A stretch of DNA of 64,000 nt from Bacteroidia bacterium (GCA_022760475.1 JALEFZ010000035.1:62001-126000); one strand, 5' to 3'; numbered from the stretch's first letter, positions 939 to 21,238 are shown. Program-made: numbers and translations. Notes: generated from the sequence alone by a model not told the origin.

Positions 939-2201
939 CTAGGGAAAATTCATGCAATTCGGAATACGCAACTTTTCAGTTGACGCCCATTTTCTTAAGA
1001 CTTCGAGTTCATCTTTCTTTGGATCTCGGTTGGCAAATCCTCTCACCTCCACCATTTCTAGATTCTTGGTCAGACATATGGTCAGAAGTCTTTTGGGTGG
1101 CTGTGCATGTCGAATCAAACGCATAGACCAAATGGAGCTCTCACCAAGTTCGCATGACCAAACATAACTTCCCACGCAGTGTCTCATTTCCGCGCCTTCC
1201 TCTTGAATTTGAGACTCGCTCAAAAGTGGTACAATTTTATACGCTGATTTCCATGACTGAGAAAGGCTAAAGTCCCCAACTCTATTGTAGATGTTGTTTT
1301 TAGGGAATGGGTTGTTGTTGCAGGAGTTTTCATTGTATAATCGAGCTTCCGCAAGGAATTTGTTATAATTTCGACCTTTGACTTCCAATCCTGGTTTAGG
1401 AGGAGGAAGCAAATCATAAGATCCATTCCTGTTTAGCAGTCTTTGTGGTCGGAATTTTACTTGCTCAATATACTTGAGGATCTCATTGACCTCACTAGTA
1501 TCGTTGACCTCCTGGTGAGCTAACCACAGAATCAATCTTTCAATGAAGGCCTCCTCCGAGGGGTTATGATTTAGCATATGTGGGGTACCAAAAAAACTCG
1601 ATGCCATCATGTTAGCAAGAAACTGGCTCCCTCCAAGACCCAAAACCTGGGCATGGCGAAGGTTGGCCAAAATCCCCAACTGCTCTTTCCCATCCATGAA
1701 AAAGGCTGCCATTTTCTTCGTAACAGGAAAGGGTAAACCCTCACATTTCCTAAGGTTTTTACCCTGGGCAAGGTGGAAAAACCAATTCATATATAAGGTA
1801 TTTTGCTCAGCAAAAGCCCTAAACATAAAAGAAGGCATCTGATAACGTACGAATAGGAACTTGAGTAAATCACCACAAAAATGTCCATGAGTATCCCCAA
1901 TATTTATCGCAACCTTTTTATAATCCTCCCATGGAAATTTCTTAAGGGAGTTGATAAATCTATTTTTATAGGTCAAAATTCTTTGCCCGAGCCCCTGAAT
2001 GAAATATGAGTTTGTGGCTAAGTAATCAGGGAAACCAATCTGGATATATTTTCGCGCCTTGAGGTAGCTTCTGCGGTGAAATTCTTTTTGTTCCTTCTGC
2101 TGCTTAAAACGAAACTTGGATTCACGAAGGAGGGTAATGAATTCTTTTCTTTCCTTCATTTCTTGCTCCCTCAAGGCAATTCTTTTTTGTCGATTTGCCA
2201 T
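939..2201 (-). CDS. PcfJ domain-containing protein
   Basis: 420-residue protein. The C-terminal third carries the PcfJ hallmarks: the EMRHCVGSY motif (His341-Cys342), a following SSIWSMR strand and the MVEVRGFANRDPK strand that resembles the usual 'QIRGxxN' block. The N-terminus is a very basic, charged helix (about residues 1-60, many KE/KR pairs) that may be a coiled coil. No signal peptide is seen, so it should be cytoplasmic. PcfJ was first named in the Enterococcus plasmid pCF10, but homologues occur widely in phages and chromosomes, and their role is unknown. Upstream partner of the truncated paralogue at 1-910 (28-bp gap). Start chosen as the first ATG; the sequence before it is AT-rich and shows no other in-frame start. 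Confidence 0.8.
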   Translation of the reverse strand: MANRQKRIALREQEMKERKEFITLLRESKFRFKQQKEQKEFHRRSYLKARKYIQIGFPDYLATNSYFIQGLGQRILTYKNRFINSLKKFPWEDYKKVAINIGDTHGHFCGDLLKFLFVRYQMPSFMFRAFAEQNTLYMNWFFHLAQGKNLRKCEGLPFPVTKKMAAFFMDGKEQLGILANLRHAQVLGLGGSQFLANMMASSFFGTPHMLNHNPSEEAFIERLILWLAHQEVNDTSEVNEILKYIEQVKFRPQRLLNRNGSYDLLPPPKPGLEVKGRNYNKFLAEARLYNENSCNNNPFPKNNIYNRVGDFSLSQSWKSAYKIVPLLSESQIQEEGAEMRHCVGSYVWSCELGESSIWSMRLIRHAQPPKRLLTICLTKNLEMVEVRGFANRDPKKDELEVLRKWASTEKLRIPNCMNFP

Positions 2202-3284: not shown

Positions 3285-3368
3285 AGGAGGGTGAACCTTA
3301 AAAAATATAATTTGTTTCTCTCCACGTCCCCAACCACCCTGTCCCACATCCGGACGTAAAGAGCAAGG

Positions 3369-3440
3369 CACGGCAGGTAGGAATCGAACCTACTTATGCT
3401 GGTTTTGGAGACCAGAGCCTGACCATTAGGCTTCTGCCGT
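3369..3440 (-). tRNA. tRNA-Trp (CCA)
   Basis: 72 nt. Perfect 7-bp acceptor stem ACGGCAG/CTGCCGT, anticodon loop CTCCAAA in a 5-bp stem, canonical T-arm, and G73, the expected discriminator for bacterial tRNA-Trp. Last tRNA of the array in the direction of transcription. Confidence 0.95.
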
Positions 3441-3592
3441 GTATTTGGAGAGAATTTGAAAGTAAATTCTCTCCATGAGCTATCATTGGCGTTTTTCGCC
3501 ATCGGTGTCTTGCAAGTCTGTTTGCCATCATCAGGTTGATGATGAAGGTGAATACGTTTCTCATAGTTTTGGTAGTTAATATTTCACAAATG

Positions 3593-3668
3593 GGGTGAGC
3601 CGAAGGGATTCGAACCCTTACTTCCGGAACCACAATCCAGCGTGCTGCCCTTACACCACGGCCACCAT
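3593..3668 (-). tRNA. tRNA-His (GTG), acceptor stem irregular
   Basis: The anticodon arm (CTGGA, loop TTGTGGT, TCCGG) gives GTG, and the T-arm and 4-bp D-stem are normal. The acceptor does not close cleanly: 5' strand GGTGGCCG faces 3' strand CGGCTCACC, which pairs only if the U of the 3' strand is bulged out (GGTG-GCCG with CGGC-U-CACC). One nucleotide is therefore extra in the 3' strand or missing in the 5' strand. Ends are approximate. Confidence 0.8.
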
Positions 3669-3769
3669 ATTGGAGATAGACCTACTTTTTGAATGTTCTT
3701 GCTTATTGTTTTTCAGTAACAACCTATTCATTATCGTCTACCCCCTCTAAGAATGGAATTTATATCGGG

Positions 3770-3844
3770 TACCCGGAGTGGGATTCGAACCCACAGGAAA
3801 ACAGATTTTAAGTCTGTCGCGTCTGCCTATTTCGCCATCCGGGC
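3770..3844 (-). tRNA. tRNA-Leu (TAA), short variable arm
   Basis: 75 nt. Acceptor GCCCGGA/TCCGGGT, A73, Leu-type D-arm (GCAGACGC), anticodon loop CTTAAAA giving TAA, T-arm GTGGG/CCCAC. The variable region is only about six nucleotides (TTTCCT) with no helix, whereas bacterial tRNA-Leu normally has a long class II arm. Confidence 0.9.
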
Positions 3845-3849
3845 AAAGG

Positions 3850-3921
3850 TTGCGGGTACAGGAGTCGAACCTGTTTCTGGGGCTTATGAGACCCCCGAGA
3901 TAGCCATTTCTCTAACCCGCA
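3850..3921 (-). tRNA. tRNA with CAT anticodon (elongator Met or Ile2)
   Basis: 72 nt. Acceptor TGCGGGT/ACCCGCA with a paired U1-A72 and A73, anticodon loop CTCATAA. The 1-72 pair and the lack of three G-C pairs next to the loop (the last pair is T-G) argue against initiator tRNA. Sequence alone does not tell elongator Met from lysidine-modified Ile2; the array needs the latter to read AUA. Confidence 0.9.
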
Positions 3922-3927
3922 ATGTTG

Positions 3928-4000
3928 TGCACCAGGCAGGAATCGAACCCGCATCTTCTGGGTGGAAACCAGGTATCTTCAGCCATTGGACCACTGATGC
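3928..4000 (-). tRNA. tRNA-Gly (TCC)
   Basis: 73 nt. Acceptor GCATCAG/CTGGTGC (one G-T pair), anticodon loop TTTCCAC giving TCC, T-stem GCGGG/CCTGC. The outermost anticodon-stem pair is a C-A mismatch. A73 rather than the common U73. Confidence 0.9.
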
Positions 4001-4014
4001 ATATAATTAGGTGG

Positions 4015-4102
4015 CGGAAGCGATGGGACTCGAACCCACAAGTCCCTGTTAGGGGAGTCCCCGATTAGCAGTCGGGTGCCTTACCATTCGGCTCACACTT
4101 CC
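4015..4102 (-). tRNA. tRNA-Ser (GCT)
   Basis: 88 nt class II tRNA. Acceptor GGAAGTG/CGCTTCC, anticodon loop CTGCTAA in a CCCGA/TCGGG stem, long variable arm (about 20 nt), G73. It is preceded directly by a strong terminator (4103-4127), so it may begin a separate transcript with the Gly-to-Trp tRNAs. Confidence 0.95.
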
Positions 4103-4127
4103 AAAAAAGGGGCGGGAAGATCCCGCC
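4103..4127 (-). terminator. Intrinsic terminator inside the tRNA array
   Basis: On the minus strand a perfect 7-bp hairpin (GGCGGGA, loop TCT, TCCCGCC; bases 4111-4127) is followed by CC and six T (4108-4103). It ends transcription coming from tRNA-Arg(TCT) just before tRNA-Ser(GCT) and therefore also defines the 3' end of whatever the 4128-4311 spacer encodes. Confidence 0.8.
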
Positions 4128-4311
4128 GGGCTTTAGCGTGATTGGATTACCTCCTTTGTTTTTAGCCTTTTCCTTTGTCGTATTTTTAATCTTCACTCTG
4201 CTTTTCACCTTCGAAACAATACTTTCCCGAACTTTTGATCTCAGCCAGATAGACCAGTCGAAAGCCGTATGCTAACTGGCCTTCTTGCTAATTTTGAAAT
4301 GCTCAAGCATG
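4128..4311 (-). ncRNA. Unassigned structured spacer RNA between tRNA-Arg(TCT) and a terminator
   Basis: A 184-nt gap, long for this array, ending in a strong terminator. On the minus strand it begins with a short AT-rich stretch followed by a hairpin with a 7-bp stem (GGCCAGT with ACTGGTC, one G-T pair) and a loop of about 16 nt. No open frame has a convincing start. It may encode a small RNA co-transcribed with the tRNAs, or be a spacer only. Confidence 0.35.
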
Positions 4312-4384
4312 AGATCCCGGTAGGACTCGAACCCACACATATCTGGTTAGAACCCAGATGCTCTTCCAGTTGAGCTACGGGACC
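4312..4384 (-). tRNA. tRNA-Arg (TCT)
   Basis: 73 nt. Acceptor GGTCCCG/CGGGATC (one G-T), anticodon loop GTTCTAA in a TCTGG/CCAGA stem, T-stem GTGGG/CCTAC. The discriminator reads as U73, which is unusual for tRNA-Arg. Confidence 0.93.
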
Positions 4385-4390
4385 TGAATG

Positions 4391-4475
4391 CGGAAGGAGA
4401 GGGACTCGAACCCCCAAGTCCTTTCAGACATCACTGTTTTCAAGACAGGTGCAATAGCCATTCTGCCATCCTTCC
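4391..4475 (-). tRNA. tRNA-Ser (TGA)
   Basis: 85 nt class II tRNA. Acceptor GGAAGGA/TCCTTCC, anticodon loop CTTGAAA, long variable arm, G73. Reads the UCN box. Confidence 0.95.
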
Positions 4476-4480
4476 GTTTG

Positions 4481-4553
4481 CAATCCCGAGGAGAATCGAA
4501 CTCCTATCCCCACATGGAAAGTGTGGTGTCCTAAGCCATTAGACGACGGGATC
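4481..4553 (-). tRNA. tRNA-Glu (TTC)
   Basis: 73 nt. Acceptor GATCCCG/CGGGATT (terminal G-T), anticodon loop CTTTCCA in a CCACA/TGTGG stem, G73 as usual for Glu. First tRNA of the left half of the array, just beyond the serpin promoter region. Confidence 0.95.
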
Positions 4554-4614
4554 ATTTATTTTTTCAACAGCAGTTTTCATTTGGAATGCGTCTCCCCTAT
4601 GTTACTTTTAACCA

Positions 4615-5826
4615 ATGAAGACGATGAAACTCAAATTGCTTTTTCCAATTATCCTAATTTCAGGCCTCCTGTTTTCTTGTAGCCAGAATCCTCCCCTACC
4701 TGTTGGCAGTTTTGAGGATGTGAGTGAAGCCAACAATGATATGGGCTTCAGGATGTTAAAAAGACTTCAGGAACAGGAACCTGATAAAAACATTTTTATT
4801 TCGCCTTTCAGCATTACCTCAGCCCTTAGCATGACAGCCAATGGTGCCGAAGGAGCGACACAAACCGAGATGTACGAAGCCTTGGGACTATCCAAGCTCA
4901 CTGAGACCGAAGTCAACAGCCAATACAAAAACATTCTTACAGCACTGCTTCAGTCCTCTCAAGGATTAGATTTTAGCATTGCCAACGGAATCTTTTATCG
5001 AGATGGTTTTAACCCTAAAACGGACTTCCTGAATCAGGCCAATGATAATTTCGAAGGCAAAGTTGAAGGCCTCGACTTTGATGATCCATCTGCCAAAGTC
5101 CAAATCAATGAATGGGTTGAGAACCAAACTGAAGAGCGCATCAAGGATATGATCTCCAATATTTCTGCTGACGACATGATGTTCTTGATCAATACCATTT
5201 ACCTTAAAGGCCCATGGCTCAATGGTTTTCCTGAACGAAGTACCCGCAAGCAAATTTTCACCCTTAGTGATGGCAGCCAGGATTCCACAGATATGATGTG
5301 GCAGGATAGCCAATTTCCTTACTACCAAGGCTCAGACTTTGATGCAGCTTCTTTCTACCTGGGCAAAAATAAAGCTCGTTTTTCTGTCGACATTATCCTT
5401 CCTAAAGAAAGCAAAGGCCTTGAAGATGTTGTGAAGAATATTAGCTTGAGTTCTTATCAAAGTGCTATTGATGGAATGGACTCAAGCAGGATCATGGTTC
5501 AATTTCCCAAGTTGGAGCTTGACTATGAAGAACAACTGGGAGACGTCCTCAAGGAAATGGGCATAAAAAAAGCCTTTCAGGAACGAGAAGCAGACCTGAG
5601 CGGAATAGCTGAAGGGCAAAACCTGTTTATCTCAAGGGTAAAGCATAAAACTTTCCTAAAGGTAGACGAAACGGGCCTGGAAGCATCAGGAGCTACATCG
5701 GTAGGTGTCTCTGTAACCTCACTCCCACCCTCATTCTTCATGGATCACCCGTTTTTGATGATCATCCGCGACATCGAATCAGGCACCATTTTGTTCATGG
5801 GTAAAGTCGAAAATCCAAACGCCTAA
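4615..5826 (+). CDS. Serpin-family protease inhibitor, lipoprotein
   Basis: 403 residues. The N-terminus is a lipoprotein signal (hydrophobic stretch ending in LLFSC), so the mature protein should be lipid-anchored outside the inner membrane. Serpin hallmarks: FISPFSITSALSMTANGAEG near the N-terminus, NTIYLKGPW in the middle, and the C-terminal FFMDHPFLMIIRD block. Aligning the reactive loop with classical serpins (hinge VDETGLEASGATSV from residue 350) puts P1-P1' at Thr368-Ser369 followed by LPP; small hinge residues support an inhibitory serpin, although P14 is Leu rather than Thr/Ser. Small P1 residues suit elastase- or subtilisin-like targets (inference). It sits in the opposite orientation inside the tRNA array, ends in a hairpin terminator, and breaks the array in two. 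Bacterial serpins are sporadic and often thought to be acquired. Confidence 0.93.
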   Translation: MKTMKLKLLFPIILISGLLFSCSQNPPLPVGSFEDVSEANNDMGFRMLKRLQEQEPDKNIFISPFSITSALSMTANGAEGATQTEMYEALGLSKLTETEVNSQYKNILTALLQSSQGLDFSIANGIFYRDGFNPKTDFLNQANDNFEGKVEGLDFDDPSAKVQINEWVENQTEERIKDMISNISADDMMFLINTIYLKGPWLNGFPERSTRKQIFTLSDGSQDSTDMMWQDSQFPYYQGSDFDAASFYLGKNKARFSVDIILPKESKGLEDVVKNISLSSYQSAIDGMDSSRIMVQFPKLELDYEEQLGDVLKEMGIKKAFQEREADLSGIAEGQNLFISRVKHKTFLKVDETGLEASGATSVGVSVTSLPPSFFMDHPFLMIIRDIESGTILFMGKVENPNA

Positions 5827-5841
5827 ATGTTGGCAGAATAG

Positions 5842-5876
5842 GTAGAGACGTTCCGTACAACGTCTCTACACTTTTT
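5842..5876 (+). terminator. Terminator after the serpin gene
   Basis: An 11-bp perfect hairpin, GTAGAGACGTT (5842-5852) with AACGTCTCTAC (5859-5869), 6-nt loop, then a short T-run. The GTAGAGACG arm is a motif often repeated in Bacteroidota genomes. Confidence 0.7.
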
Positions 5877-5898
5877 CATCCTTTCGGCATCTCTCGGG

Positions 5899-5970
5899 AG
5901 ACCTTGGCAGGATTCGAACCTGCGACCGGCTGGTTCGTATCCAACTGCTCTTCCTCTAAGCTACAAGGCC
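5899..5970 (-). tRNA. tRNA-Arg (ACG)
   Basis: 72 nt. Acceptor GGCCTTG/CAAGGTC (one G-T), anticodon loop ATACGAA in a GTTGG/CCAGC stem, T-stem GCAGG/CCTGC. A34 would need TadA editing to inosine. Discriminator reads U73. Confidence 0.93.
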
Positions 5971-5987
5971 ATTCTTAAAAAATTGAG

Positions 5988-6057
5988 AGTCCGGAGTGGG
6001 AGTCGAACCCACCTGTAACAGTTTTGCAGGCTGATCGCACGCCATGTGCATCCGGAC
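5988..6057 (-). tRNA. tRNA-Cys (GCA)
   Basis: 70 nt. Acceptor GTCCGGA/TCCGGAC, U73 (Cys identity), D-stem GCAC/GTGC. The loop reads CTGCAAA, but the closing 31-39 pair is C-A and another stem pair is T-T, leaving a weak anticodon stem. Confidence 0.88.
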
Positions 6058-6095
6058 CAATGAGCCGGCCGTAGCCGACGTTCATAGTTGTGGAG

Positions 6096-6171
6096 TGGAC
6101 GAGGTGGGAATCGAACCCACCACAATTTGTTTGCAAGACAAATTCGCCAAAGCCTTGGGACATGCCCGCCC
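6096..6171 (-). tRNA. tRNA-Ala (TGC)
   Basis: 76 nt. Anticodon loop CTTGCAA in a strong 7-bp stem (AATTTGT/ACAAATT); acceptor GGGCGGG/CTCGTCC contains the G3-U70 pair that defines alanine identity; A73. Position 8 is C instead of the nearly universal U8, which normally makes a tertiary pair. Confidence 0.88.
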
Positions 6172-6175
6172 ATGG

Positions 6176-6248
6176 TATCCCCGACAGGGCTTGAACCTGT
6201 AACCCCCTGGTTAAAAGCCAGGTGCTCTGCCAATTGAGCTACGGAGAT
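6176..6248 (-). tRNA. tRNA-Lys (TTT)
   Basis: 73 nt. Acceptor ATCTCCG/CGGGGAT, anticodon loop CTTTTAA in a CCTGG/CCAGG stem, A73. Structurally normal. Confidence 0.95.
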
Positions 6249-6264
6249 AAGAACAATCAAAAAG

Positions 6265-6336
6265 CGACCCCGGTAGGATTCGAACCTACAACCACTTACT
6301 TAACAGGAAAGTGCTCTGCCATTGAGCTACAAGGTC
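6265..6336 (-). tRNA. tRNA-Asn (GTT)
   Basis: 72 nt. Acceptor GACCTTG/CGGGGTC (two G-T pairs), anticodon loop CTGTTAA, G73. One T-T mismatch in the anticodon stem (CTTTC/GTAAG). Confidence 0.92.
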
Positions 6337-6349
6337 AGGTCAACAAGAG

Positions 6350-6423
6350 TAGGAATGGCAGGATTCGAACCTGCAACCTTCTGGTTCTAAGCCAGACGCC
6401 TCTGCCAATTGGGCTACATTCCC
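6350..6423 (-). tRNA. tRNA-Leu (TAG), class I shape
   Basis: 74 nt. Acceptor GGGAATG/CATTCCT, A73, anticodon loop CTTAGAA in a TCTGG/CCAGA stem, T-stem GCAGG/CCTGC. The D-arm (GCCC...GGGC-like) and the 5-nt variable region are those of an ordinary class I tRNA, not of a class II tRNA-Leu. The anticodon reads CUN codons. Confidence 0.88.
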
Positions 6424-6441
6424 AAAATGGGGCTACTTGTA

Positions 6442-6492
6442 ACATCTGACTTTAAAGGAGTCGAACCTTCATAGCCACGAAGTATCAGATGT
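6442..6492 (-). ncRNA. 51-nt mini tRNA-like RNA (acceptor and T-arm only)
   Basis: On the minus strand an 8-bp perfect stem (ACATCTGA/TCAGATGT, 6485-6492 with 6442-6449) encloses about 35 nt. These hold a T-arm (GAAGG, loop TTCGACT, CCTTT) and a short CTTC/GAAG hairpin that competes with it. There is no D-arm and no anticodon arm. It lies in register between tRNA-Leu(TAG) and tRNA-Pro. It is either a deleted pseudo-tRNA or a minimal tRNA mimic. Confidence 0.55.
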
Positions 6493-6507
6493 CTACGGCA
6501 CCCGCTG

Positions 6508-6579
6508 TAAGGGTGACAGGAATCGAACCTGCGCCTTCTTGGTCCCAAACCAAGTGTCCAGCCATTGGACCACACCCTT
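6508..6579 (-). tRNA. tRNA-Pro (TGG)
   Basis: 72 nt. Perfect acceptor AAGGGTG/CACCCTT, anticodon loop TTTGGGA in a CTTGG/CCAAG stem, A73. Reads the CCN box. Confidence 0.93.
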
Positions 6580-6594
6580 ATATAATCTTTCTTG

Positions 6595-6676
6595 TGGGGA
6601 TGGTAGGATTCGAACCTACTCAGCCTGCGCAACGGATTTACAGTCCGCCCCAACTCTCCAACTTTGGCGCATCCCC
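6595..6676 (-). tRNA. tRNA-Tyr (GTA)
   Basis: 82 nt class II tRNA. Acceptor GGGGATG/CATCCCC, anticodon loop CTGTAAA in a GCGGA/TCCGT stem, long variable arm, A73. Confidence 0.94.
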
Positions 6677-6683
6677 AAATCTG

Positions 6684-6918
6684 TAGTCCCTACGGGATTC
6701 GAACCCGTACTCCCTAACGGGCCGACAGGCTCCAAGTGCGCTTCCCTACTAAGCTTCTTTAGAGAGGCTGTTCGGTGCTGTGGGATACTGGACTGTTCAT
6801 CCGATTTCTCCCTTCCGCGAATCCTACCCATTTGTTCGCTCAGATCAAACGGGATTTTCCTGTCTGTCCACGGCTGAGTGAACACTTACCGCAGCACTTC
6901 CTTTTATGCTAAGGGACC
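6684..6918 (-). ncRNA. 235-nt tRNA-like RNA with a large internal extension
   Basis: The two ends look like one tRNA: 5' GGTCCCT pairs with 3' AGGGACT (one G-T), followed by A73; the 5' end continues into a D-arm (GCAT...GTGC) and the 3' end is preceded by a normal T-arm (ACGGG, TTCGAAT, CCCGT). A GCGG/CCCGT helix could form the top of an anticodon stem. Between them lie about 160 extra nucleotides instead of a 7-nt loop, including a long-range 10-bp helix with one mismatch (GTTCACTCAG with CTGAGCGAAC). No G3-U70 pair and no tag-like reading frame, so not tmRNA; no group I intron core seen. It may be an interrupted tRNA or a tRNA-mimicking RNA related to the neighbouring Ro60 system. Confidence 0.55.
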
Positions 6919-6923
6919 TAAGG

Positions 6924-6998
6924 TAGGTTTGGCAGGAATCGAACCTGCGACCCTCTGTTTGTAAGACAGATGCTCTGAACCGACTGAGCTACAAACCC
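6924..6998 (-). tRNA. tRNA-Val (TAC)
   Basis: 75 nt. Acceptor GGGTTTG/CAAACCT, anticodon loop CTTACAA in a TCTGT/ACAGA stem, T-stem GCAGG/CCTGC, A73. Structurally normal. Confidence 0.95.
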
Positions 6999-7012
6999 AT
7001 GTGAAGACATGG

Positions 7013-7084
7013 TGAGTTTGGCAGGATTTGAACCTACGACCGTCTACGTATCAGGCAGATGCTCTACCGCTGAGCTACAAACTC
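7013..7084 (-). tRNA. tRNA-Ile (GAT)
   Basis: 72 nt. Acceptor GAGTTTG/CAAACTC, anticodon loop CTGATAC in a TCTGC/GTAGA stem, A73. Decodes AUU and AUC. Confidence 0.95.
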
Positions 7085-7109
7085 AAATAAAATTACTCAT
7101 AGACTGTTG

Positions 7110-7181
7110 TGGAACAGTGTGGATTCGAACCACCCCCTTCCGGGCTTCAACCGGACGCTCTGCCACCTAAGCTACAGTTCC
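7110..7181 (-). tRNA. tRNA-Phe (GAA)
   Basis: 72 nt. Anticodon loop TTGAAGC in a TCCGG/CCGGA stem, A73. There is one T-T mismatch in the acceptor (GGAACTG/CTGTTCC) and one G-A mismatch at the base of the T-stem. Confidence 0.9.
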
Positions 7182-7202
7182 AAAATAAATCAGGGTAAAA
7201 GC

Positions 7203-7300
7203 GAACTTCGACCGGGGAATCGCAATGGGGATTTGCACCCCTCCCCGATAGCAATGCCATCGAGGCCCTACCCCTTTATGAGAGCGAAGTAACGAAGTTC
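7203..7300 (-). ncRNA. 98-nt tRNA-like RNA without a usable anticodon
   Basis: A perfect 8-bp terminal stem (GAACTTCG/CGAAGTTC) encloses a D-arm-like hairpin (GCTC...GGGC), a hairpin in the anticodon position whose 7-nt loop GCATTGC lacks the universal U33, and a T-arm-like hairpin (GGGG, TGCAAAT, CCCC) extended by an outer GGGGA/TCCCC helix. The order of arms is that of a tRNA, but the linkers are too long and the anticodon loop is wrong. It contains one copy of the GTTACTTCG motif shared with the 7498-7571 and 7610-7731 RNAs. Confidence 0.45.
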
Positions 7301-7317
7301 TACGACACCTGAATTCG

Positions 7318-7389
7318 AGGCTCCGGAGGGATTTGAACCCTCACCAACTGATTACAAGTCAGTCGTTCTGCCGATTAAACTACAAAGCC
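7318..7389 (-). tRNA. tRNA-Thr (TGT)
   Basis: 72 nt. Acceptor GGCTTTG/CGGAGCC, anticodon loop CTTGTAA in an ACTGA/TCAGT stem, U73. Reads the ACN box. Confidence 0.94.
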
Positions 7390-7396
7390 TTCTAAG

Positions 7397-7467
7397 ATGC
7401 CCAACCAGGATTCGAACCTGGAGCCCCACAGCCAAAATGTGGTGTCCTGCCTTTAGACCATTGGGCA
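7397..7467 (-). tRNA. tRNA-Gln (TTG)
   Basis: 71 nt. Perfect acceptor TGCCCAA/TTGGGCA, anticodon loop TTTTGGC in a CCACA/TGTGG stem, T-stem CCAGG/CCTGG. U1-A72 as in many tRNA-Gln; the discriminator reads U rather than G. Confidence 0.92.
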
Positions 7468-7497
7468 GAATTGGCGGTAACTTGCGAAAAGAGTGTG

Positions 7498-7571
7498 GAA
7501 TATCGACGGGATTCGAACCCGCTACCATCTGATCCGGAATCAAATGCTCTAACCAAATGAGCTACGAAGTA
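7498..7571 (-). tRNA. tRNA-Arg (CCG)-like, acceptor stem broken
   Basis: D-arm (GCTC/GAGC), anticodon arm (TTTGA, loop TTCCGGA, TCAGA; anticodon CCG) and T-arm (GCGGG/CCCGT) are all tRNA-like, but the acceptor strands TACTTCG and CGATATT pair at only four of seven positions. It is either a decayed tRNA or one partner of the tRNA-like RNA family here. Both acceptor strands recur, joined by two bases, inside the RNA at 7610-7731. Confidence 0.65.
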
Positions 7572-7609
7572 ACCCTTTCCTAACGACACGCCTATCTGTA
7601 AATATCTTT

Positions 7610-7731
7610 GGGGCAACTACCGAGAAAAGACTATTGGCGCTCTACCACCTGAGCTACAGGGTCACCCCTGGCAGGACTCGAACCTGCGACCACCCGAATA
7701 TCGATCGAAGTAACTTTTCTCTACGGCACCC
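7610..7731 (-). ncRNA. Candidate Y RNA with circularly permuted tRNA domain
   Basis: On the minus strand the 5' and 3' ends pair by a perfect 8-bp helix (GAGAAAAG/CTTTTCTC, 7714-7721 with 7622-7629), extended outward by GG/CC and GGG/CCC pairs with bulges. Inside, in order, are a T-arm (GCAGG, TTCGAGT, CCTGC; 7671-7687), an acceptor-like 5-bp hairpin CAGGG/CCCTG closed by a GUGA tetraloop (7657-7670), and a D-arm (GCTC...GAGC; 7639-7654). A normal tRNA has the reverse order, so the RNA termini fall where the anticodon stem would be. From family knowledge, bacterial YrlA-type Y RNAs carry a tRNA-like module and are usually encoded next to the Ro60 gene, which is the case here. The bulged terminal helix would be the Ro60-binding stem (inference). 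Confidence 0.65.
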
Positions 7732-7744
7732 AAAATTTTTGATG

Positions 7745-7813
7745 AAACGCCAATGGGAGTTGAACCCATATCTACCTTCACAGGCCGCTTTTATTCCTTT
7801 AAGCTATGGCGTT
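7745..7813 (-). ncRNA. Anticodon-less tRNA-like RNA
   Basis: 69 nt. Perfect acceptor AACGCCA/TGGCGTT, 8-9 linker TA, D-stem GCTT/AAGC, T-arm ATGGG, TTCAACT, CCCAT. Where the 17-nt anticodon arm should be there is a 4-bp hairpin GCCT/AGGT capped by a GUGA tetraloop (7774-7785). It can fold as a tRNA but cannot decode a codon. The same GUGA loop closes the acceptor-like hairpin of the candidate Y RNA next to it. Confidence 0.65.
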
Positions 7814-7867
7814 TGTGCCCTTGAATCGTACGTCAAAGTGCTTTGCCTGAGGCAATCCCAGGCCGAA

Positions 7868-7972
7868 CATGACTGTTCAGCGTCATTTCATGACTTTTCT
7901 TTGTTGTGAAACATTAAGCTGAGCTTAAATGCTCCCTGGCTTCGTAATTGTCATGATGCCTGAACAGCATCT
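7868..7972 (-). ncRNA. Structured RNA candidate between tRNA-like RNA and tRNA-Asp
   Basis: A long-range helix of 8 bp (CTGTTCAG 7873-7880 with CTGAACAG 7960-7967) and, after an internal loop, 6 bp (CATGAC 7889-7894 with GTCATG 7950-7955) closes a loop holding a second hairpin (CATTAAGC...GCTTAAATG with one bulge). There is no tRNA T-arm and no open frame. A stem with an internal loop closing a large loop is the general plan of a Y RNA, and the location beside the Ro60 gene fits. The strand is assumed from its neighbours. Confidence 0.4.
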
Positions 7973-7998
7973 TCTGTCTGACCAGTATGGTCATCTTG

Positions 7999-8070
7999 CG
8001 ACCCAGACGGGAATCGAACCCGCTTCTACCACATAGACAGTGTGGCGTCCCGCCATGGGACCTCTGGGTC
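7999..8070 (-). tRNA. tRNA-Asp (GTC)
   Basis: 72 nt. Acceptor GACCCAG/CTGGGTC, anticodon loop CTGTCTA in a CCACA/TGTGG stem, T-stem GCGGG/CCCGT, G73 as expected for Asp. First tRNA downstream of the Ro60 gene, 69 bp after its stop codon; the gap holds a GTAGCG/CGCTAC hairpin. Confidence 0.95.
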
Positions 8071-8139
8071 AAGGTGTAGCGATATACGAGCTACCGCTAC
8101 AACACCCCTCAAGTATTTGATAAAGAACGATTTAAACCT

Positions 8140-9663
8140 TTATACTTCGATGTCTTCAATTTGGGCCAGGACTTTCTCCCTGCCCTCAAGTGATGATAGG
8201 ATGTCAAAAATTTTCTCTGACCATCCCCCAATCAGGAAGACATCTTTTCTTATCGATTTCAATGGAGCCTGCCCATATCCAGCCAAATCAAAAATGTAGA
8301 TCTTGGCATCAGGTGCGATCCTTTTGTATTTATTCCAATACATTTCAATCGTCTCATTGCTCCCGTAATTCGAGTTCCAGAGTTGGCAATCTGTGAAGAC
8401 AAAAACCTTGTCTACAATGATTCTCCTCTTGAATAACTCCCTGATAGCCAAGTAACCATTGGTAGAATGCCCTACTTTCACCCGCTTCATGGCTTCGACA
8501 TTGGCAAGGATTCCCTTGTTTCCCAAAGCGACCGTTTCATAAGTCTCTCCAAATAAGCCAGTGATCACATGCTTGCATTTGCTTTTTAGCAAACTCGCCA
8601 GGACAAGGCCTACTTCCATTAGCCTGATCTTTGATTTGCCTGAAATTGCCTGATCCATTGAACCCGACATATCCGCAGCAATCAAAATCCTGGTATCCAG
8701 CTCAAAACCCTTAAGGTTTTCAACTGAAGCAAGCATGGCTCCTTCAAGGGCATCCAGGAAATAGGCGCTATATCCTGATTTGTGGTCTCGAAGCTCCTTA
8801 TAGGCCGAATAGTACCTGAATGGCAATTGCTTGGATTTCTTCACGGCTGAAGGACTTGCCAAATACCTGGCTGCCTTCTCTACCGCCTCTCTCGAAACTC
8901 CATAATCCAACAGATTTCTGAGGTTTCTTAGCAATGCCATGTATGCAAGTTTCTCACTCAGGATCAACTCTTCCCACTTCTGACGAAAAGCTGCCTCCTT
9001 GGCCTTTTGGCTGGCAAATTTCTCCTGCCCTGCTTTTGATAGCTCAGTTTCCCATGTATAAGGCACTGAAAGGCTACCTGAAATGATTTTATCAAAGATC
9101 TCTTGTTGTTTTGCATCCTTTGCCTTTGGGTGAACCAGAAATAACGCATCTCTCAAGCTTACTTCTGCTGCCCTGTTATACTTTGCAAATTGATACTCAT
9201 CAAATCGGTTAAATGCCTCGGCTACTCCCTTCTGCAACTGCTTCGAAAGCCTTCCCAGCTTTTTGGCACCCGACCTTTTATTTGTTATCTGGTAGTAAGC
9301 CAGCAATTCAGTAATCTCATCAGGCCTCTTAATGACCCTCGATAATGCTTTCCTGACCAGGCTATCTCCATTGTGAACCTTCGCTAATTCCACCAGCAAT
9401 ACTACTGGAACTGTTCTGAGGTACATTTTTTCCCTTGCATACACTGCTAGCTTGGCTACGAAGCCAGGATCCTTATTCGCGATCTGTTCTACCAGCTCAA
9501 TGATCCTTTTTAACCTTTCATCTCCGCTTTCATAAAATGATTTTTGCAGGAGGGTCGACACTGTAGCAGTATATAGTTCCAACTTCGAGCTTAAGGTGTA
9601 TGCCAAAGCACCTTCATGATTATTCGTAACAGTTTGTCCCTTTTTCTTTAGATTAAATCTCAT
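8140..9663 (-). CDS. rsr: TROVE domain protein, bacterial Ro60 orthologue (Rsr)
   Basis: 507 residues, the normal size for bacterial Ro60. Residues 1 to about 345 form the TROVE domain, a ring of helical HEAT-like repeats that binds Y RNA on its outside and the single-stranded ends of misfolded RNAs in its hole; the diagnostic SFYESGDERL block is at about 42-51. Residues from about 325 form a vWA domain with the MIDAS motif DMSGSM (Asp331). No signal peptide, so cytoplasmic. In Deinococcus, Ro60 with Y RNA assists RNA maturation and, with PNPase, structured-RNA decay, mainly under stress. Here the gene lies at the head of the tRNA array on the same strand, 69 bp from tRNA-Asp, so gene and array could share a transcript. 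Several tRNA-like RNAs follow, one with Y-RNA architecture. Start at 9663 is the first Met and aligns with the family N-terminus. Confidence 0.93.
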   Translation of the reverse strand: MRFNLKKKGQTVTNNHEGALAYTLSSKLELYTATVSTLLQKSFYESGDERLKRIIELVEQIANKDPGFVAKLAVYAREKMYLRTVPVVLLVELAKVHNGDSLVRKALSRVIKRPDEITELLAYYQITNKRSGAKKLGRLSKQLQKGVAEAFNRFDEYQFAKYNRAAEVSLRDALFLVHPKAKDAKQQEIFDKIISGSLSVPYTWETELSKAGQEKFASQKAKEAAFRQKWEELILSEKLAYMALLRNLRNLLDYGVSREAVEKAARYLASPSAVKKSKQLPFRYYSAYKELRDHKSGYSAYFLDALEGAMLASVENLKGFELDTRILIAADMSGSMDQAISGKSKIRLMEVGLVLASLLKSKCKHVITGLFGETYETVALGNKGILANVEAMKRVKVGHSTNGYLAIRELFKRRIIVDKVFVFTDCQLWNSNYGSNETIEMYWNKYKRIAPDAKIYIFDLAGYGQAPLKSIRKDVFLIGGWSEKIFDILSSLEGREKVLAQIEDIEV

Positions 9664-14724: not shown

Positions 14725-17700
14725 TTAAGGCTGAATCTCAACCCTTTCTCCTGAGGAGTGGCTGGTGAATTCAGGCGCATACATACACTGGATCGTAGTG
14801 ATGCCGTTTGAAAAATCACCGGGCAGGTTTACACGAAGGGGATACTCAAAGACCCAGGTCCCTTCAGGCAAATAGCCGAAGAAGAAATTGGTTGCCGCAT
14901 CGCGGGTACTTTCATAGTAGCCCAAACCTCCTTGGTATTTGTAGCGTGAGATTACATTGATCGGTTCCAAACCTGCTGCCCTCATGTCCTTCATGTGGAC
15001 GTATTCCATGGCCTGATTGACCCTTAGTTCTATCCGTACCACAATTTTATCGCCTTGCTTCAATTCTGCTTCTTTGATAGGCTTTAAAACTGCACCTTTG
15101 GGAGTGATGACCTCCTTGTTCAATGTCTTACGAATGGAAAGTGGGGTCTCTGCAAAGGTGATTTTATCCAAATCCTCAAAGTATTGCCAAAAGACTCCAC
15201 CCCATGCAGGTGATTTGCCGGGCTTTTTAACCTGGATATTGCCCATTTTGGGTTCAATCTCACTTCCAGTCCAGCTTACCTGGTACTGACCTGTGCCTGC
15301 TTCGATCTTATCTATTTTTTCTGCTTCGACTTTGACATCTCCCAGCTTTACTTCTACCAATTGCTGGTCATCAAGCCATTCACTTCCTCCTTGGAGAAGG
15401 GCATTACAGGCAGCTACTGTCGCTCGGGTAGTCTCCCAATCGTTGGTCCGCTTGTTGATCAGCAACCAATACCTCATGTCATCTATGGCATCCTGATCGT
15501 CGGATATTTCCATGAAGGCTTCGATCAACAAGGCTTGCTTTTCAATCGGAGCTTCCCACCAGAACCAGCCGTTGTTGTCCTTCCAATACATCCCCTTATC
15601 GCTGGATTTTACGGCACTTTCGTCCAGGCCTCTGATCAGCTTTCTTGCAAGTTCCTTGTCTTCATTTCTCTGGAATACCAAGGCCAGCATTCCATTCATA
15701 TAGGTCGATTGCTTGTTCCAATAGGTTTTTGCCTGACCGTAGTAATAATTGTAGGCTTCGTCCTCGATATCCATCGGAAGCTTCGTGTAGAAAGACCTCA
15801 TGTACAGGTATTGGATTTGGCTGTAACCCAAGTGATTCGCCTCCATGTCTATCCCTTTGATCTTTTTCAACTTGCGGTAGTCGTCCAGAATCTCACGATC
15901 CAGGTATTGGACGGCCTTTTCCATCATGATGGAAATTTCGGGATTGCCTGACACGTCGCTGACCCCCAACTGGCGCAGGTGCCCCATCCCTGTGGCGATC
16001 AACTGCGTGATGTAACGAGATTCACCCATACCTGGGAACCAGGAGAATCCTCCAGTGCCATTCTGCCTCTCAGAAAGTATCTTCTTGGTTCTGCTGAACT
16101 CATCCGCCATGCGATTCAGGTCAAACAACAGTCCCAATCGCTTCTTCCTTTCACTTTCGTTTTTTGCCTGAAGTACCCAGGGAGTTTCTTCCAACAAGGC
16201 ATTCTTTAGTTCCTGGTTCTTCTCAAGATTTGATAAGAAACTCTCCTCGCTCCCAATGCTTTTCCACTGGTCAAACACCTGCTTGATCATCGGTTTGTCA
16301 TTGGCAAGATTCGTAGCCAGGGCATTGGCATAAAAGCGGCTGAAAACTTGCTCAGTACATTCATAAGGATACTCCATCAAATATGGGAGGGCTTGTACCG
16401 CATACCAAGCTGGGTTAGAGGTTACATCCAGGGTCAATTTGTGATGAGTCAAAGTAGCAGAAGAGCCACTGTTTTTCAACTTTACAAATTCAATCTTTTT
16501 CTTCTTTTCTTTGGACTTCATGGCAAAGGGAATGCTTTCAGTAACCAGCATTCTGTTTGTCAGAACCGGAATGATATTTTCTTGTCCATCTGTAAAGGCT
16601 GCTGTCCTTGCAAAGACTTGCACAGCAATGGCTTGTCTATCTTTTGGAACATTAATTTCCCAGGAGACCACTTCACTGCCCTTGGGTGGAATGCTGACCG
16701 AAATGGCTTCCATGTTATGGGCAAACTCCCCATCCACAGCCTTCATGTTGAAGGCATTGAAAAGTTTCAGCTCGGCAGTACCGACCTGCAGGCTATCGGT
16801 CATATTTATCACCTTCGCAGTCAGGGTCATCTTGTCTCCTTCTCGGAAGAACCTTGGGAGGTTCGGCACCACCATCAATTCCTTCTGGGTAACGGTTTCT
16901 CCAGTTATTTTACCGACCTTCAGGTCCTGGGTGTGAGCCAATCCAAGGAATTTCCACTTGGTCAGGGCTTCAGGTATGGTAAATTCAATGATAATTTCTC
17001 CCGCCTCATTGGTTCGGAGTTTGGGTAAGAAGAAGGCAGTTTCATTAAGATTTCTTCTAGGCGTAATGGGTTCTGAGTTCCCATCTTCCAATGGAAGATC
17101 CTCTGCTTTTTCATCATCCAAGGACAGGGCTTCATTCTTTTCTCTTAATTTCTCATCACTATACAGTCCTTTTTTGGGGGTAATTTTCCTGCGCTTAACG
17201 GAAGCTCTTGCCTGGACTTTATTAGATAAGGACATTTCCTCCATTGGAGCTGCTGCCATGCTAACCCCATCAGCCTCGGCATCCATATTCACCATGCCAC
17301 TCAGCATCCTTGGTTTCGCCAGATAAGAATTTCCAAAATAAAATCCATGAAAATTCAATCGGTCATATCTTTGGGAGTTTCCATACGCAGAACGGTTCCA
17401 GTTGTAGTCCAACTGCCCAGAGCGATCAGTACCAAAGCCTGTGCTTCGCTTGTAAATACTCCCATAGTAGGTCGGATAGAGATTCATGATCCAATTGTGT
17501 GCGGCAAACTCATCCAAGGAGGCATCATAGAGGGTAGCAACCATCTCCGAAGCCACAGCATCCGCCTTGGGACCCGAGATTTTCAATTTCCACTGCTCCT
17601 TTTGCCCTGGCTGTAAGGGAGACCTGAAGCTCATCCATTCCAACTTCAATTGCTTATTGGTCCAGGGTACTATAATGTTACCGGATTCATTGAAATATTC

Positions 17701-20700
17701 ATTTCTATAGACAAACCCGATCTGCCAACTGAGATTTCCCCTATGTTCTTCAGTAATGGGTACCTCAATTTGCGAACTTCCCTTTTTCAACTCAATCCAT
17801 TTTTCATCCAGAATCTCATTGGACTTCATCAATTGATAAAGTACCCAAATCTTTTTCTCTGTGGTTTTGAATTCAAGGATGGCAGTTTGCCCAGGTTCTA
17901 CCGAATTGGGATTGCTGCTCCATGAAATCAAGGTAGGTGTAGGCAGGACCTTCTCTTCAGGATCATAAAGGGTAAAGAAGGATTGTGCTTCCTCTTCTTC
18001 ATCCTTGGTGATGAAAACCACCTTATACTTCCCAGGACTTGCCTCTTTGAGGGAATCAATAGAAAAACTCTTCCCTTCAGCCGTTTCGAACTCCTGTTCA
18101 AGGATGGGATCACCTTCTGCCCAATTGTAAAATTCATTTTCATCCTTGTACAAATCATGAGGAAAGAGCTTTCTGAATTCCTTTTCAGAATAAACAAACT
18201 GATCCGGCTGATTCCATCTACGTTTCCTGAAAGTCTGTTCAGGCATTTCAAGTGGAATTATTTTAATGGTTCCTTTGGTAGGAACAAATTTTCCATTCAG
18301 GTTATTGGTAACAACCCCAATGGATTCAGGATCTTTTAGGCTGATGCTTTCACTTGCCTTTAGCTTGACCTCAAGGCTTTTTTCGCTGATCCTAACTCCA
18401 GCAGTTGCACTTCGGGTTTCCCCACTGATGTCCACCACGTCGACCACCACTTTATAATTATAAATAGGTTTTGCCCCTGGCTTTTTGGCAGACTTGCCTG
18501 GCTCAGCTATAAACTTCAGTGTGAATTTTCCTTTATCGTCAGTCTGGGCTGTGCCGTTTACAATTTCCTTTTCGGGCTCCACGGGCGTTCTTCTCCAATA
18601 GTACCAGTAGGGTAGCTCACGTGCCCTGATGACACGAAACTTCACTGTAGCATTCGAAATGGCAGCACCTGAATAGGCCTCGGCATTTCCGCTAAGCTCT
18701 ACCTCATCCCCAAATTTGTAGTTGCCTTCCACGGTATCCACCTTGACTTCGAAGGTAGGTCGCTTATAATCCTCCACCGAGATATACTGACTTCCATAAA
18801 GGGTCTGGATGGTCATTCGGCCATTCAATCCACCCGTGGGAGCAACAAAACTTCCATTGAGAGATCCATACTCATTGGTTTGAAGGTCCTGTTCGGATAT
18901 TTTTTGGCGATTGGCATCATAAAAAGTTACCCTTAGGGTTTGATTCTTGATGATGTAGGGCTTGGACTGATCAATTCTTCCCGTCAGAATAGCCTTGAAG
19001 TAGACCGTCTGACCGGGTCTGTAGATCGCCCTGTCTGTAAATATGTTGACTTGACGCCTTTCTTTGGTATTCTTGTTTCGGTTGTTGTAGTAATATATAT
19101 CCTGTCCTTCCGCTTTCCAGGACTCTTTGCCTTTTTTGAAAATGACATAGACCCGTTCACGCTCATACTTCCTCTTGATAACCAGGCCACCTTTATTATC
19201 AGTCTTGAGGGTTTCCGCCAATTTGGGTTCATTCCTACGGCTACCAAAATTTCCCCTTCTATCTAAATCAGCCCGGTACACTTGGGCAGTTACATTTTTC
19301 AAAGGCTCACCTGTACTCCTATCCAACAGGAAATAATGGTGTTCAAATTCGTGGAGATAGTATATATGAGACAGATCACTCACCCTATGTTCCAGATAAG
19401 CGATTGCATGATTTTTTATGCTAAATGCAGAATTATCTGATACGAGGACCAGGTATTCACCTCCAGCTAGTGCAGGAACAGCAATTTCGGCTTGATGGTC
19501 GAAGTGATCTTCAGATCCAGGAAGTTTGCTTGTCCAACTTTTCAGAACCCTTTGTTTTCTGAATAAGGTAGCCAGTTTTTCTTCCTTGCTGTACTGTAGC
19601 TGAGCAATGTCTTTTTTCAACTTTTCAGTAAGTGCTATCAGCCTGAAATAGGTCTTATTCAGATTTGTATAGTTGAGCAAAATCCTTGAAGCCTCCCCGG
19701 AGGTAACGTAATCTTCTCCAGTCAGAGACATTTCCTTCCTGAGGATGCCAATTTTTAGCACCTCCGCATTGATGGCGGCATTGGTTTTGGGATAATTCTT
19801 GATGATGTCCTCACAAAGGCTCAATGCTTTCACCTTTGAGCTTTGTCGCTCCTCCTCACTTGCATCAATTGCCGTATTATCCTTGAGTTTGTTATAAATC
19901 TCTGCGAGTGCCAGTTTGATGTCCCCTTCTACTGGATGCTTCAATGCAAGGCCAGTCAGGCCTTCAATGGCAGTTTTATAGCCGTTTTGATCATTGGTAT
20001 GATTCTTTACAAACTCAAGCCTTTTTAAGGTAACATCGTATAGGGCATAGAGATTTTCCTTTGTGTAATGGAAGGTAGTCAGGTCTTGATAGAGCTTAAT
20101 GATGTTAAATGTGGCATTTTGATCATCGGAGCTTTGAAAATTATACCTGATGAAATCTTGTACAGAAAGGTTGCCAGCACTTGCTTTCAGTTCAAAATCT
20201 TCCTTGGATTCAGGCATCAAGAGACCAGACTCATTGAAATAGCTAATGGCAGCCTGGGCTAGAATGTCGTAGAGGCTAGGACGATATTTTTCCGAACCCT
20301 CCTGCCTTACCAGAAGGACCTCATAATCCTCAACAGGAATATCCTTCAGGATCTCCTTTCGATCCAAAGCCCGAAAATGAAGGTCATTGATTGTCTTCAC
20401 AAAGGTTTTGAGATCCCATGTCTGAAAATCACCTGCCTTTTCGGTCAACTCAGTTCTCTGCATGATCCTCCACCTGTTGTTGGCGAGGTATTGGTAATAC
20501 ATCTGAGCCAGAAAGGAATTCAAAATGGCTTGTCGAATGGGGGAACCCTGATTGAGTTCTTGCTCCATTTGGACAATGATCAGAGAATCCGAGTTTTCTG
20601 TTACGGTCTGTTGGTATTTAAAGCCAAAAAGCAGGGCTTTGATGTATTGAGGATCGTTTCCTTCTTTCTCAGCAGCTTCAAGGATGTCTGCTACAGCTTC

Positions 20701-20868: not shown

Positions 20869-21238
20869 ATAAGTGAAATTGGAACAATGCCTGATTTTTG
20901 AGTCTGGATTTTCCAAAAATCATTCAAGGATAAGGTACAAAATAAAATGTAGGTAAAAGTATATGTATATGAAAAATGAGTATTAACTGCCAAGCAGTGC
21001 TTAATTTAGAAGAGTCCAAGTGCTTCAGGTCTCTGCCCTTGCTTATATGAGTAAAAGTTTATTGCTTTTCCATAAGTACACGAAATATCATGGCTGTGGG
21101 TTTTCCTCCTGCATTTACCAAAAAAAATCCTGATATTCGATTCAACTAGGTATTTCACTTTTTTCAAATGTTCTGACAGGTAATTTGATGCCTCCTGAAT
21201 TTTGTCAAAGTCCATACCGATCCAAACACACAACACAA
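20869..21238. other. Divergent intergenic region
   Basis: AT-rich region between the divergent A2M gene and the 2-TM gene. It must hold both promoters, but I find no exact TAnnTTTG box, no hairpin terminator and no convincing small gene. Confidence 0.3.

What the first reader, a model, noticed from the sequence alone, without database searches (positions are those of the whole stretch)
7610..9663. Ro60 (TROVE) gene coupled to a tRNA array and a candidate permuted tRNA-mimic Y RNA
The gene at 8140-9663 is a clear Ro60 orthologue, and it heads the tRNA array on the same strand. At 7610-7731 an RNA folds as closing stem, T-arm, GUGA-capped acceptor-like hairpin, D-arm, closing stem. This is a tRNA cut at the anticodon and closed at the acceptor. 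Known from the family: bacterial Y RNAs are encoded near Ro60 and contain a tRNA-like module. What appears new is the direct linkage of Ro60 and its Y RNA with a complete tRNA set, suggesting that Ro60 here handles tRNA maturation, storage or decay.
Basis: partly seen in the sequence, partly recalled or inferred. Interest (0 to 1): 0.9.

Follow-up and report, generated by a model that had tools for sequence, protein, structure and literature searches.

The report
Ro60 RNA-repair locus carrying spare tRNAs
Next to a bacterial Ro60 gene lie at least four different small Ro60-type RNAs, a complete second set of transfer RNAs and, just outside the window, an RNA ligase gene, which looks like one locus for repairing and replacing damaged transfer RNAs.

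Summary
8140-9663(-) is a Ro60 (TROVE + vWA) gene, the only one in the genome, and it heads a same-strand array of about 24 tRNAs. 7606-7736(-) is a permuted tRNA in a Ro60-type stem. The RNA itself is a known kind, YrlA-like (sub-threshold RF02553).

More was found. The array holds four Y-like RNAs with four different inserts, one miscalled tRNA-Arg(CCG). It is a redundant set for all 20 amino acids. An RtcB ligase gene lies 2.4 kb beyond the window edge on the same strand. In related loci Y motifs (456 copies) never lie opposite Ro60, and nearby RtcB is same-strand in 39 of 39. Array-HNH-GNAT-RtcB recurs in a related genus, and the same HNH family accompanies plasmid tRNA arrays. In Anabaena such an array is silent and induced with rtcB under translational stress.

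Best reading: an RNA repair-and-replacement island. In other species some Y RNAs carry up to 33 nt identical to 23S rRNA, apparently undescribed. No expression or binding data exist.

The parts
8140..9663 (-). Ro60/Rsr gene (TROVE + vWA, 507 aa), head of the array
   Evidence: Pfam PF05731, PF25045; PDB 9l5y/9kop/2nvo; only TROVE gene in genome
7606..7736 (-). Ya: Y RNA with circularly permuted tRNA insert (T-arm, acceptor hairpin with GUGA loop, D-arm)
   Evidence: RF02553 core match; exact 5' motif; covariation over 52 sequences
7472..7594 (-). Yd: Y-like RNA whose insert is D-arm, anticodon arm, T-arm in normal order, acceptor replaced by the Ro60-type stem (8 bp GGAAAGGG/CUCUUUUC); miscalled tRNA-Arg(CCG) 7497-7571
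   Evidence: 5' motif with 3 mismatches; homologue L035:13824 with a different anticodon (GAG); stem 4/300 shuffles as good
7187..7315 (-). Yb: Y RNA of the GGGG-(arm)-T-arm-CCCC class, the class whose member L074:13773-13909 aligns full length to the Deinococcus Y RNA model
   Evidence: exact 5' motif; stem 0/300 shuffles; class alignment and covariation; RF01053 only sub-threshold and only for the relative, not for Yb itself
6428..6506 (-). Yc: short Y RNA with a T-arm-like hairpin insert only
   Evidence: exact 5' motif; stem 9/300 shuffles, weakest of the four
3367..8070 (-). tRNA array: redundant set for all 20 amino acids, interspersed with Ya-Yd
   Evidence: genome has about 33 further tRNAs elsewhere; roughly 60-77% identity to host tRNAs of the same anticodon
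5988..6058 (-). tRNA-Cys (GCA) with degenerate D-arm, missed by ARAGORN
   Evidence: RF00005 31.1 bits over cut-off; read in sequence
7745..7813 (-). tRNA-like gene without a regular anticodon stem
   Evidence: RF00005 45.4 bits, not called by ARAGORN
939..2201 (-). PcfJ-like protein, one of the same-strand genes between array and rtcB; membership in the island uncertain
   Evidence: PF14284; not conserved beside Ro60 in relatives

Best explanation
The locus is a Bacteroidota version of the Ro60-Y RNA-RtcB RNA-repair operon into which a spare, complete tRNA set has been built. When tRNAs are cut or otherwise damaged (anticodon nucleases, phage, antibiotics, oxidative stress), the island is induced: RtcB re-joins broken tRNAs, Ro60 bound to its Y RNAs collects or gates damaged and misfolded RNA (in known systems towards a nuclease such as PNPase), and the array supplies replacement tRNAs for all 20 amino acids. 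The Y RNAs share one Ro60-binding stem and act as adaptors, each with a different insert: a tRNA opened at the anticodon (Ya), a tRNA with the acceptor replaced (Yd), a T-arm hairpin (Yc) and a Deinococcus-Y-type fold (Yb). Shown: genes, strands, order, conserved motif, covariation, redundancy, conservation of Ro60/Y/RtcB linkage. Inferred: that the RNAs are made and bind Ro60, co-transcription, induction by tRNA damage, division of labour.
For: Y RNAs: exact motif GTGYCGTAGA-N5-GNTACTTCG three times in the array, none in 100 shuffles; covariation. Motif beside Ro60 in 78/80 relatives and 21/28 unselected phylum loci; 456 copies counting the viral loci, none on the opposite strand; 1 in 20 control windows. 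RtcB at C86:58202-59608(-), 2.4-3.8 kb left of the window, same strand. RtcB within about 10 kb of Ro60 in 20/80 relatives, 17/28 phylum loci and 2/19 viral loci, always same strand (39/39), mostly with the Y cluster, and in some loci the tRNAs, in between. Array-HNH-GNAT-RtcB order shared with L035 (HNH 62%, GNAT 39%, RtcB 66%). Redundant tRNA set. Same genus pair: G009 with Ro60 and array 61 tRNAs, G008 without Ro60 39. HNH homologues sit in or beside 20/28/21-tRNA arrays on Nostoc, Mycobacterium and Tolypothrix plasmids. Anabaena's 26-gene spare tRNA operon is silent and de-repressed with rtcB, an HNH gene and GNAT genes (PMC10272220). Salmonella rsr-yrlBA-rtcBA is induced by tRNA fragments (PMC7790460).
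Against: No expression, binding or phenotype data. RtcB is about 5.8 kb beyond the array here, behind a 154-aa ORF, two PcfJ-like genes, HNH, GNAT and a sulfotransferase; a serpin gene on the other strand interrupts the array. In the unselected sample few Ro60-RtcB loci hold tRNAs, so the spare set is optional. 12 of 23 array/host pairs have identical anticodon loops, so the array is not broadly altered against anticodon nucleases. Some array tRNAs are degenerate (Cys, Ala, 7745-7813). No RtcR-type regulator was sought. The Ro60-binding role of the stem is inferred from conservation, not tested.
Confidence: 0.58

Rival explanations
1. Hitch-hiking array: a mobile spare tRNA array (plasmid/phage type, accompanied by HNH) inserted into an ordinary Ro60-Y-RtcB locus; no functional coupling between Ro60 and the tRNAs.
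For: HNH of the locus belongs to a family found in plasmid tRNA arrays; the array is optional among Ro60 loci; phage and plasmid tRNA arrays are common.
Against: Y RNAs and tRNAs are interleaved in L018, L058, L061, L085 and the window; tRNAs near Ro60 keep its strand (194/200); Ro60 lies in or beside tRNA arrays also in phages (Atuin; viral loci).
Confidence: 0.2
2. Chaperone of array transcripts: Ro60 and Y RNAs help fold, process or quality-control the array's own, partly degenerate tRNA precursors; RtcB linkage is secondary.
For: Direct adjacency, interleaving and shared strand; several array tRNAs score poorly; Ro60 binds misfolded small RNAs (established for the family).
Against: Most Ro60-Y loci have no tRNAs nearby, so this cannot be the general function; in the unselected sample RtcB linkage (17/28) is commoner than tRNA linkage (3/28).
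Confidence: 0.1
3. Decoy: the Y RNAs' tRNA- and rRNA-like inserts act as baits that occupy RNA-modifying enzymes or nucleases rather than as adaptors for Ro60's cargo handling.
For: Insert diversity, including tRNAs opened at different points and a 23S-like insert in relatives; YrlA is a substrate of tRNA modification enzymes (PMC8394870) and has been proposed as a competitive inhibitor of an anticodon nuclease (PMC7790460).
Against: Y RNA levels would have to rival tRNA levels; the conserved Ro60-type stem in every copy points to function in the RNP.
Confidence: 0.1

Closest known systems
YrlA, Y RNA-like (RF02553), enterobacterial and other bacterial Y RNAs
   Same: Ya has the same insert: T-arm, acceptor-like hairpin, D-arm inside a Ro60 stem
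   Different: Ro60-binding stem consensus differs (model matches only positions 24-84; below gathering score); several Y RNAs of different design per locus
Deinococcus radiodurans Y RNA (RF01053)
   Same: A relative of Yb's class aligns full length, including GGUUACUUC and the T-arm
   Different: Sub-threshold (19.4 bits, gathering 80); Yb itself gives no match
rsr-yrlBA-rtcBA RNA repair operon (Salmonella; PMC7790460)
   Same: Ro60, Y RNAs and RtcB on one strand in that order
   Different: Here a complete tRNA set lies between Ro60 and RtcB and RtcB is several genes away; RtcA and RtcR not seen among the genes scanned
Anabaena sp. PCC 7120 trn operon (PMC10272220)
   Same: Redundant, about 26-tRNA array; regulon includes rtcB, HNH and GNAT genes; the window genome's HNH has homologues in related plasmid arrays
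   Different: No Ro60 or Y RNA mentioned; rtcB is elsewhere in that genome
Phage tRNA arrays with Ro60, e.g. Arthrobacter phage Atuin (OK040794)
   Same: Ro60 gene inside a same-strand tRNA array
   Different: Phage genome; Y RNAs there not analysed; no RtcB annotated within the 17.5 kb viewed

Membership tests
Ro60/Rsr protein family | TROVE domain plus vWA domain | tested here: met
   PF05731 E=1.4e-32; PF25045 E=5.7e-8 over cut-off
Ro60/Rsr protein family | Binds Y RNA and misfolded RNA | not testable with these tools
   needs binding assay
Rsr equivalog NF041674 (narrow NCBIfam family) | Curated cut-off of 900 bits | tested here: not met
   50.8 bits: a Ro60 homologue, not a member of this narrow family
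YrlA (RF02553) | T-arm, acceptor-like hairpin, D-arm module | tested here: met
   Ya core 44.6 bits, E=1.3e-7; covariation
YrlA (RF02553) | Rfam gathering score 69 | tested here: not met
   44.6 bits; the outer stem of the model is not matched. Filed as YrlA-like, not as a curated member
Bacterial Y RNA (general) | Encoded beside Ro60, closed by a long two-part stem with an internal loop | tested here: met
Bacterial Y RNA (general) | Bound by Ro60 in the cell | not testable with these tools
   needs pull-down
Deinococcus Y RNA (RF01053), for Yb | Match to RF01053 | tested here: inconclusive
   class member L074 19.4 bits, E=0.19; Yb none
RNA repair operon (Ro60-Y-RtcB) | RtcB ligase linked to Ro60 on the same strand | tested here: met
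   39/39 same strand in relatives
RNA repair operon (Ro60-Y-RtcB) | Co-transcription and induction by tRNA fragments | not testable with these tools
   needs expression data
trn-type spare tRNA operon | Redundant same-strand tRNA set beside the housekeeping set | tested here: met
trn-type spare tRNA operon | Silent until translational stress | not testable with these tools
   needs expression data

The most novel reading that the evidence does not exclude
Ro60 loci of Bacteroidota encode a kit of interchangeable Y RNAs: one Ro60-binding stem carrying tRNAs opened at different points (anticodon, D-loop, acceptor) and, in several species, a 23S rRNA mimic, so that one Ro60 protein is aimed at tRNA and ribosome damage alike. 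The permuted tRNA modules may have arisen from junctions of neighbouring tRNAs in such arrays (T-half of one, D-half of the next). Together with spare tRNAs and RtcB this would be a full repair, discard and replace system.
Probability: 0.35. Interest if true: 0.88.

Novelty: new variant of a known kind. Interest (0 to 1): 0.72.

Why it matters
What bacterial Ro60 and its Y RNAs do outside Deinococcus is largely open. A locus that joins Ro60, several Y RNAs, a full spare tRNA set and RtcB points to tRNA damage and makes the idea testable in culturable relatives (for example Flavobacterium, Spirosoma, Niastella, Pontibacter). It links three fields that have been treated apart: Ro60/Y RNA, RNA repair operons, and silent tRNA arrays of plasmids and phages. 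Y RNAs with a 23S-like insert would give a molecular handle on the reported role of Rsr in 23S rRNA maturation.

Tried and rejected
MFE significance of the single RNA (z=-1.0) is not evidence by itself. My first motif spacing (N6) missed the three exact copies and found only Yd; the same wrong spacing was used in the genome-wide pattern search, which therefore says nothing. Host 23S could not be compared because no LSU rRNA was found in the assembly; Chryseobacterium 23S was used instead. A resemblance of Yb's class to riboswitches was considered: only a weak FMN hit for Yb (18.3 bits, E=0.022), while the Deinococcus Y RNA model aligns a relative full length; rejected as chance. Anticodon-loop resistance of the array tRNAs: not supported. 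A defence-system reading (PADLOC): no hits for Ro60, only marginal ones elsewhere. PcfJ-like genes are not conserved beside Ro60. HNH homologues on Rhizobium and Persicobacter plasmids have no array, so HNH is not exclusive to arrays. The apparent enrichment of arrays beside Ro60 in the 80 nearest relatives (17 with five or more tRNAs) is partly a sampling effect: only 1 of 28 in the phylum sample. No paper joining Ro60 and tRNA arrays, or describing rRNA-like Y RNAs, was found, but the key Ro60 review and the bacterial Y RNA survey are not in the library, so novelty is not proven.

Full report
WHAT WAS CHECKED. The gene at 8140-9663(-) encodes 507 aa with TROVE and Ro60-type vWA domains, related to solved TROVE proteins and to D. 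radiodurans Rsr, and is the genome's only TROVE gene. It is followed on the same strand by 23 ARAGORN tRNAs from 8070 down to 3367; Rfam adds a tRNA-like element at 7745-7813 and a Cys tRNA at 5988-6057. The genome has about 33 other tRNA genes; array tRNAs share roughly 60-77% identity with the host tRNA of the same anticodon and cover all 20 amino acids with a lean set in which U34 is the commonest wobble base. The array is thus a second, redundant set.

THE Y RNA. Its tRNA module is opened at the anticodon and its 3' and 5' acceptor strands are fused directly, giving CAGGG-GUGA-CCCUG. Rfam's YrlA model matches the module (44.6 bits) but not the outer stem, and stays below the gathering score. 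In 80 Ro60 loci from other genomes and 20 from viral contigs I found the same design in many species. Fifty-two such RNAs, chosen by sequence motifs and not by pairing and aligned without structure, support the helices: 97.0% of cells paired, 24 of 28 pairs with changes on both sides, covariation 0.650 against 0.193 in shuffles and at most 0.157 when slid; RNAalifold predicts the same fold.

FOUR Y-LIKE RNAs, FOUR DESIGNS. The 5' motif GTGYCGTAGA-N5-GNTACTTCG occurs exactly three times in the 64 kb, all in the array, with none in 100 shuffles, and once degenerate. Each is followed by a complementary strand (shuffles as good: Ya 1/300, Yb 0/300, Yc 9/300, Yd 4/300). Yd deserves notice: ARAGORN calls it tRNA-Arg(CCG), but by eye its acceptor hardly pairs, it is enclosed by an 8-bp Ro60-type stem, and its homologue in L035 (alignment score 86, best of 200 shuffles 47) has another anticodon. 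It is better read as a Y RNA with a tRNA in normal order whose acceptor was replaced. Yb belongs to a class of which L074:13773-13909 aligns over its whole length, including GGUUACUUC, to the Deinococcus Y RNA, though below threshold; Yb itself does not match.

NEIGHBOURHOOD. The Y motif lies beside Ro60 in 78 of 80 relatives and 21 of 28 TROVE loci from an evenly drawn sample of 395 genomes of the phylum. Of 456 motif copies (viral loci included) none is on the strand opposite Ro60; 20 control windows hold one. RtcB lies within about 10 kb in 20/80, 17/28 and 2/19 loci, on the Ro60 strand in all 39, usually with the Y cluster between. In the window's own genome rtcB is at C86:58202-59608(-), just outside the window. 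tRNAs near Ro60 also keep its strand (194/200; 16/18) but are an optional feature: 3 of 28 unselected loci have three or more. Where present they can be interleaved with Y RNAs (L018, L058, L061, L085). In the family of the window, tRNA-Asp is the first tRNA after Ro60 in three genera, and within one genus the species with Ro60 has 61 tRNAs and the one without has 39.

LINK TO SPARE tRNA OPERONS. Between array and rtcB lie two PcfJ-like genes, HNH, GNAT and a sulfotransferase. L035 keeps array-HNH-GNAT-(macrodomain-like ORF, by eye)-RtcB. The HNH family occurs in or beside arrays of 20, 28 and 21 tRNAs on Nostoc PCC 7524, Mycobacterium intracellulare and Tolypothrix plasmids, though not on two other plasmids. 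In Anabaena PCC 7120 a 26-gene tRNA operon is silent and induced under translational stress; its repressor TrcR also represses rtcB (77-fold up without TrcR), an HNH gene (all8564) and GNAT genes (PMC10272220). In Salmonella rsr-yrlBA-rtcBA responds to tRNA fragments (PMC7790460). These two independent precedents make the repair-and-replace reading the most economical one.

WIDER FINDING. Across loci the Ro60 stem carries many inserts (rough counts by pattern): T-then-D permuted tRNA 146, T-hairpin and other T-containing types about 50, the GGGG..CCCC class 29, short hairpins 37, and 13 with a 23S-like stretch. By eye several further copies (e.g. L028:12101) are tRNAs opened in the D-loop; the pattern caught one (L061:5803). 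The 23S-like copies match Chryseobacterium 23S at the AACUAUAACGGUCCUAAGGUAGCG region, up to 33 of 33 nt (L052, E=1.8e-14), recur in 14 loci, keep the Y stem, and the one searched matches nothing in Rfam. D. radiodurans Rsr has been linked to 23S maturation (Chen 2007, cited in PMC8394870). None lies in the window.

VERDICT. Observation confirmed; the RNA is a new member of the YrlA-like kind, the locus a new variant of the Ro60-Y-RtcB repair operon. The Ro60 and Y RNA assignments are secure by sequence; the repair-and-replace function is inference at about 0.58.

Noticed in passing
L052:13605-13832 and L011, L023, L030, L032, L033, L037, L044, L063, L067, L072, L079, L081, L086: Y RNAs whose insert contains up to 33 nt identical to 23S rRNA around AACUAUAACGGUCCUAAGGUAGCG; about 225 nt, conserved Ro60 stem, no Rfam match for the one searched.
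   Followed up: partly
L028:12101, L028:11956, L012:11806, L058:12157, L061:5803, L082:11582: Y RNAs that look like tRNAs opened in the D-loop (D 3' half, anticodon arm, T-arm, acceptor, D 5' half).
   Followed up: partly
6222-6295, 6313-6378, 6938-7058: The YrlA model weakly matches junctions between neighbouring tRNAs (26-32 bits), suggesting how permuted modules could arise in an array.
   Followed up: no
4615-5826: A serpin gene (PF00079, E=9e-109) on the opposite strand sits in the middle of the tRNA array.
   Followed up: no
8070-8110: Stable hairpin (z=-2.6) just after Ro60 with a motif-like GGTGTTGTAGC; could be a short degenerate Y RNA or a terminator-like element.
   Followed up: no
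7814-7997: Unassigned 184-nt gap in the array; its 7814-7930 part folds better than shuffles (z=-2.4).
   Followed up: no
6692-6755: Partial tRNA-like remnant (19 bits, below threshold) between tRNA-Val and tRNA-Tyr.
   Followed up: no
L191:14543-15040: HNH gene whose homologues lie in or beside 20-28 tRNA arrays on Nostoc, Tolypothrix and Mycobacterium plasmids: a possible marker gene of spare tRNA arrays.
   Followed up: partly
14725-20916: 2063-aa secreted protein that looks, by eye, like a bacterial alpha-2-macroglobulin; together with the serpin a second putative protease inhibitor nearby.
   Followed up: no
L140 (phage Atuin OK040794): Annotated Ro-like gene embedded in a same-strand array of more than 20 tRNAs.
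   Followed up: partly
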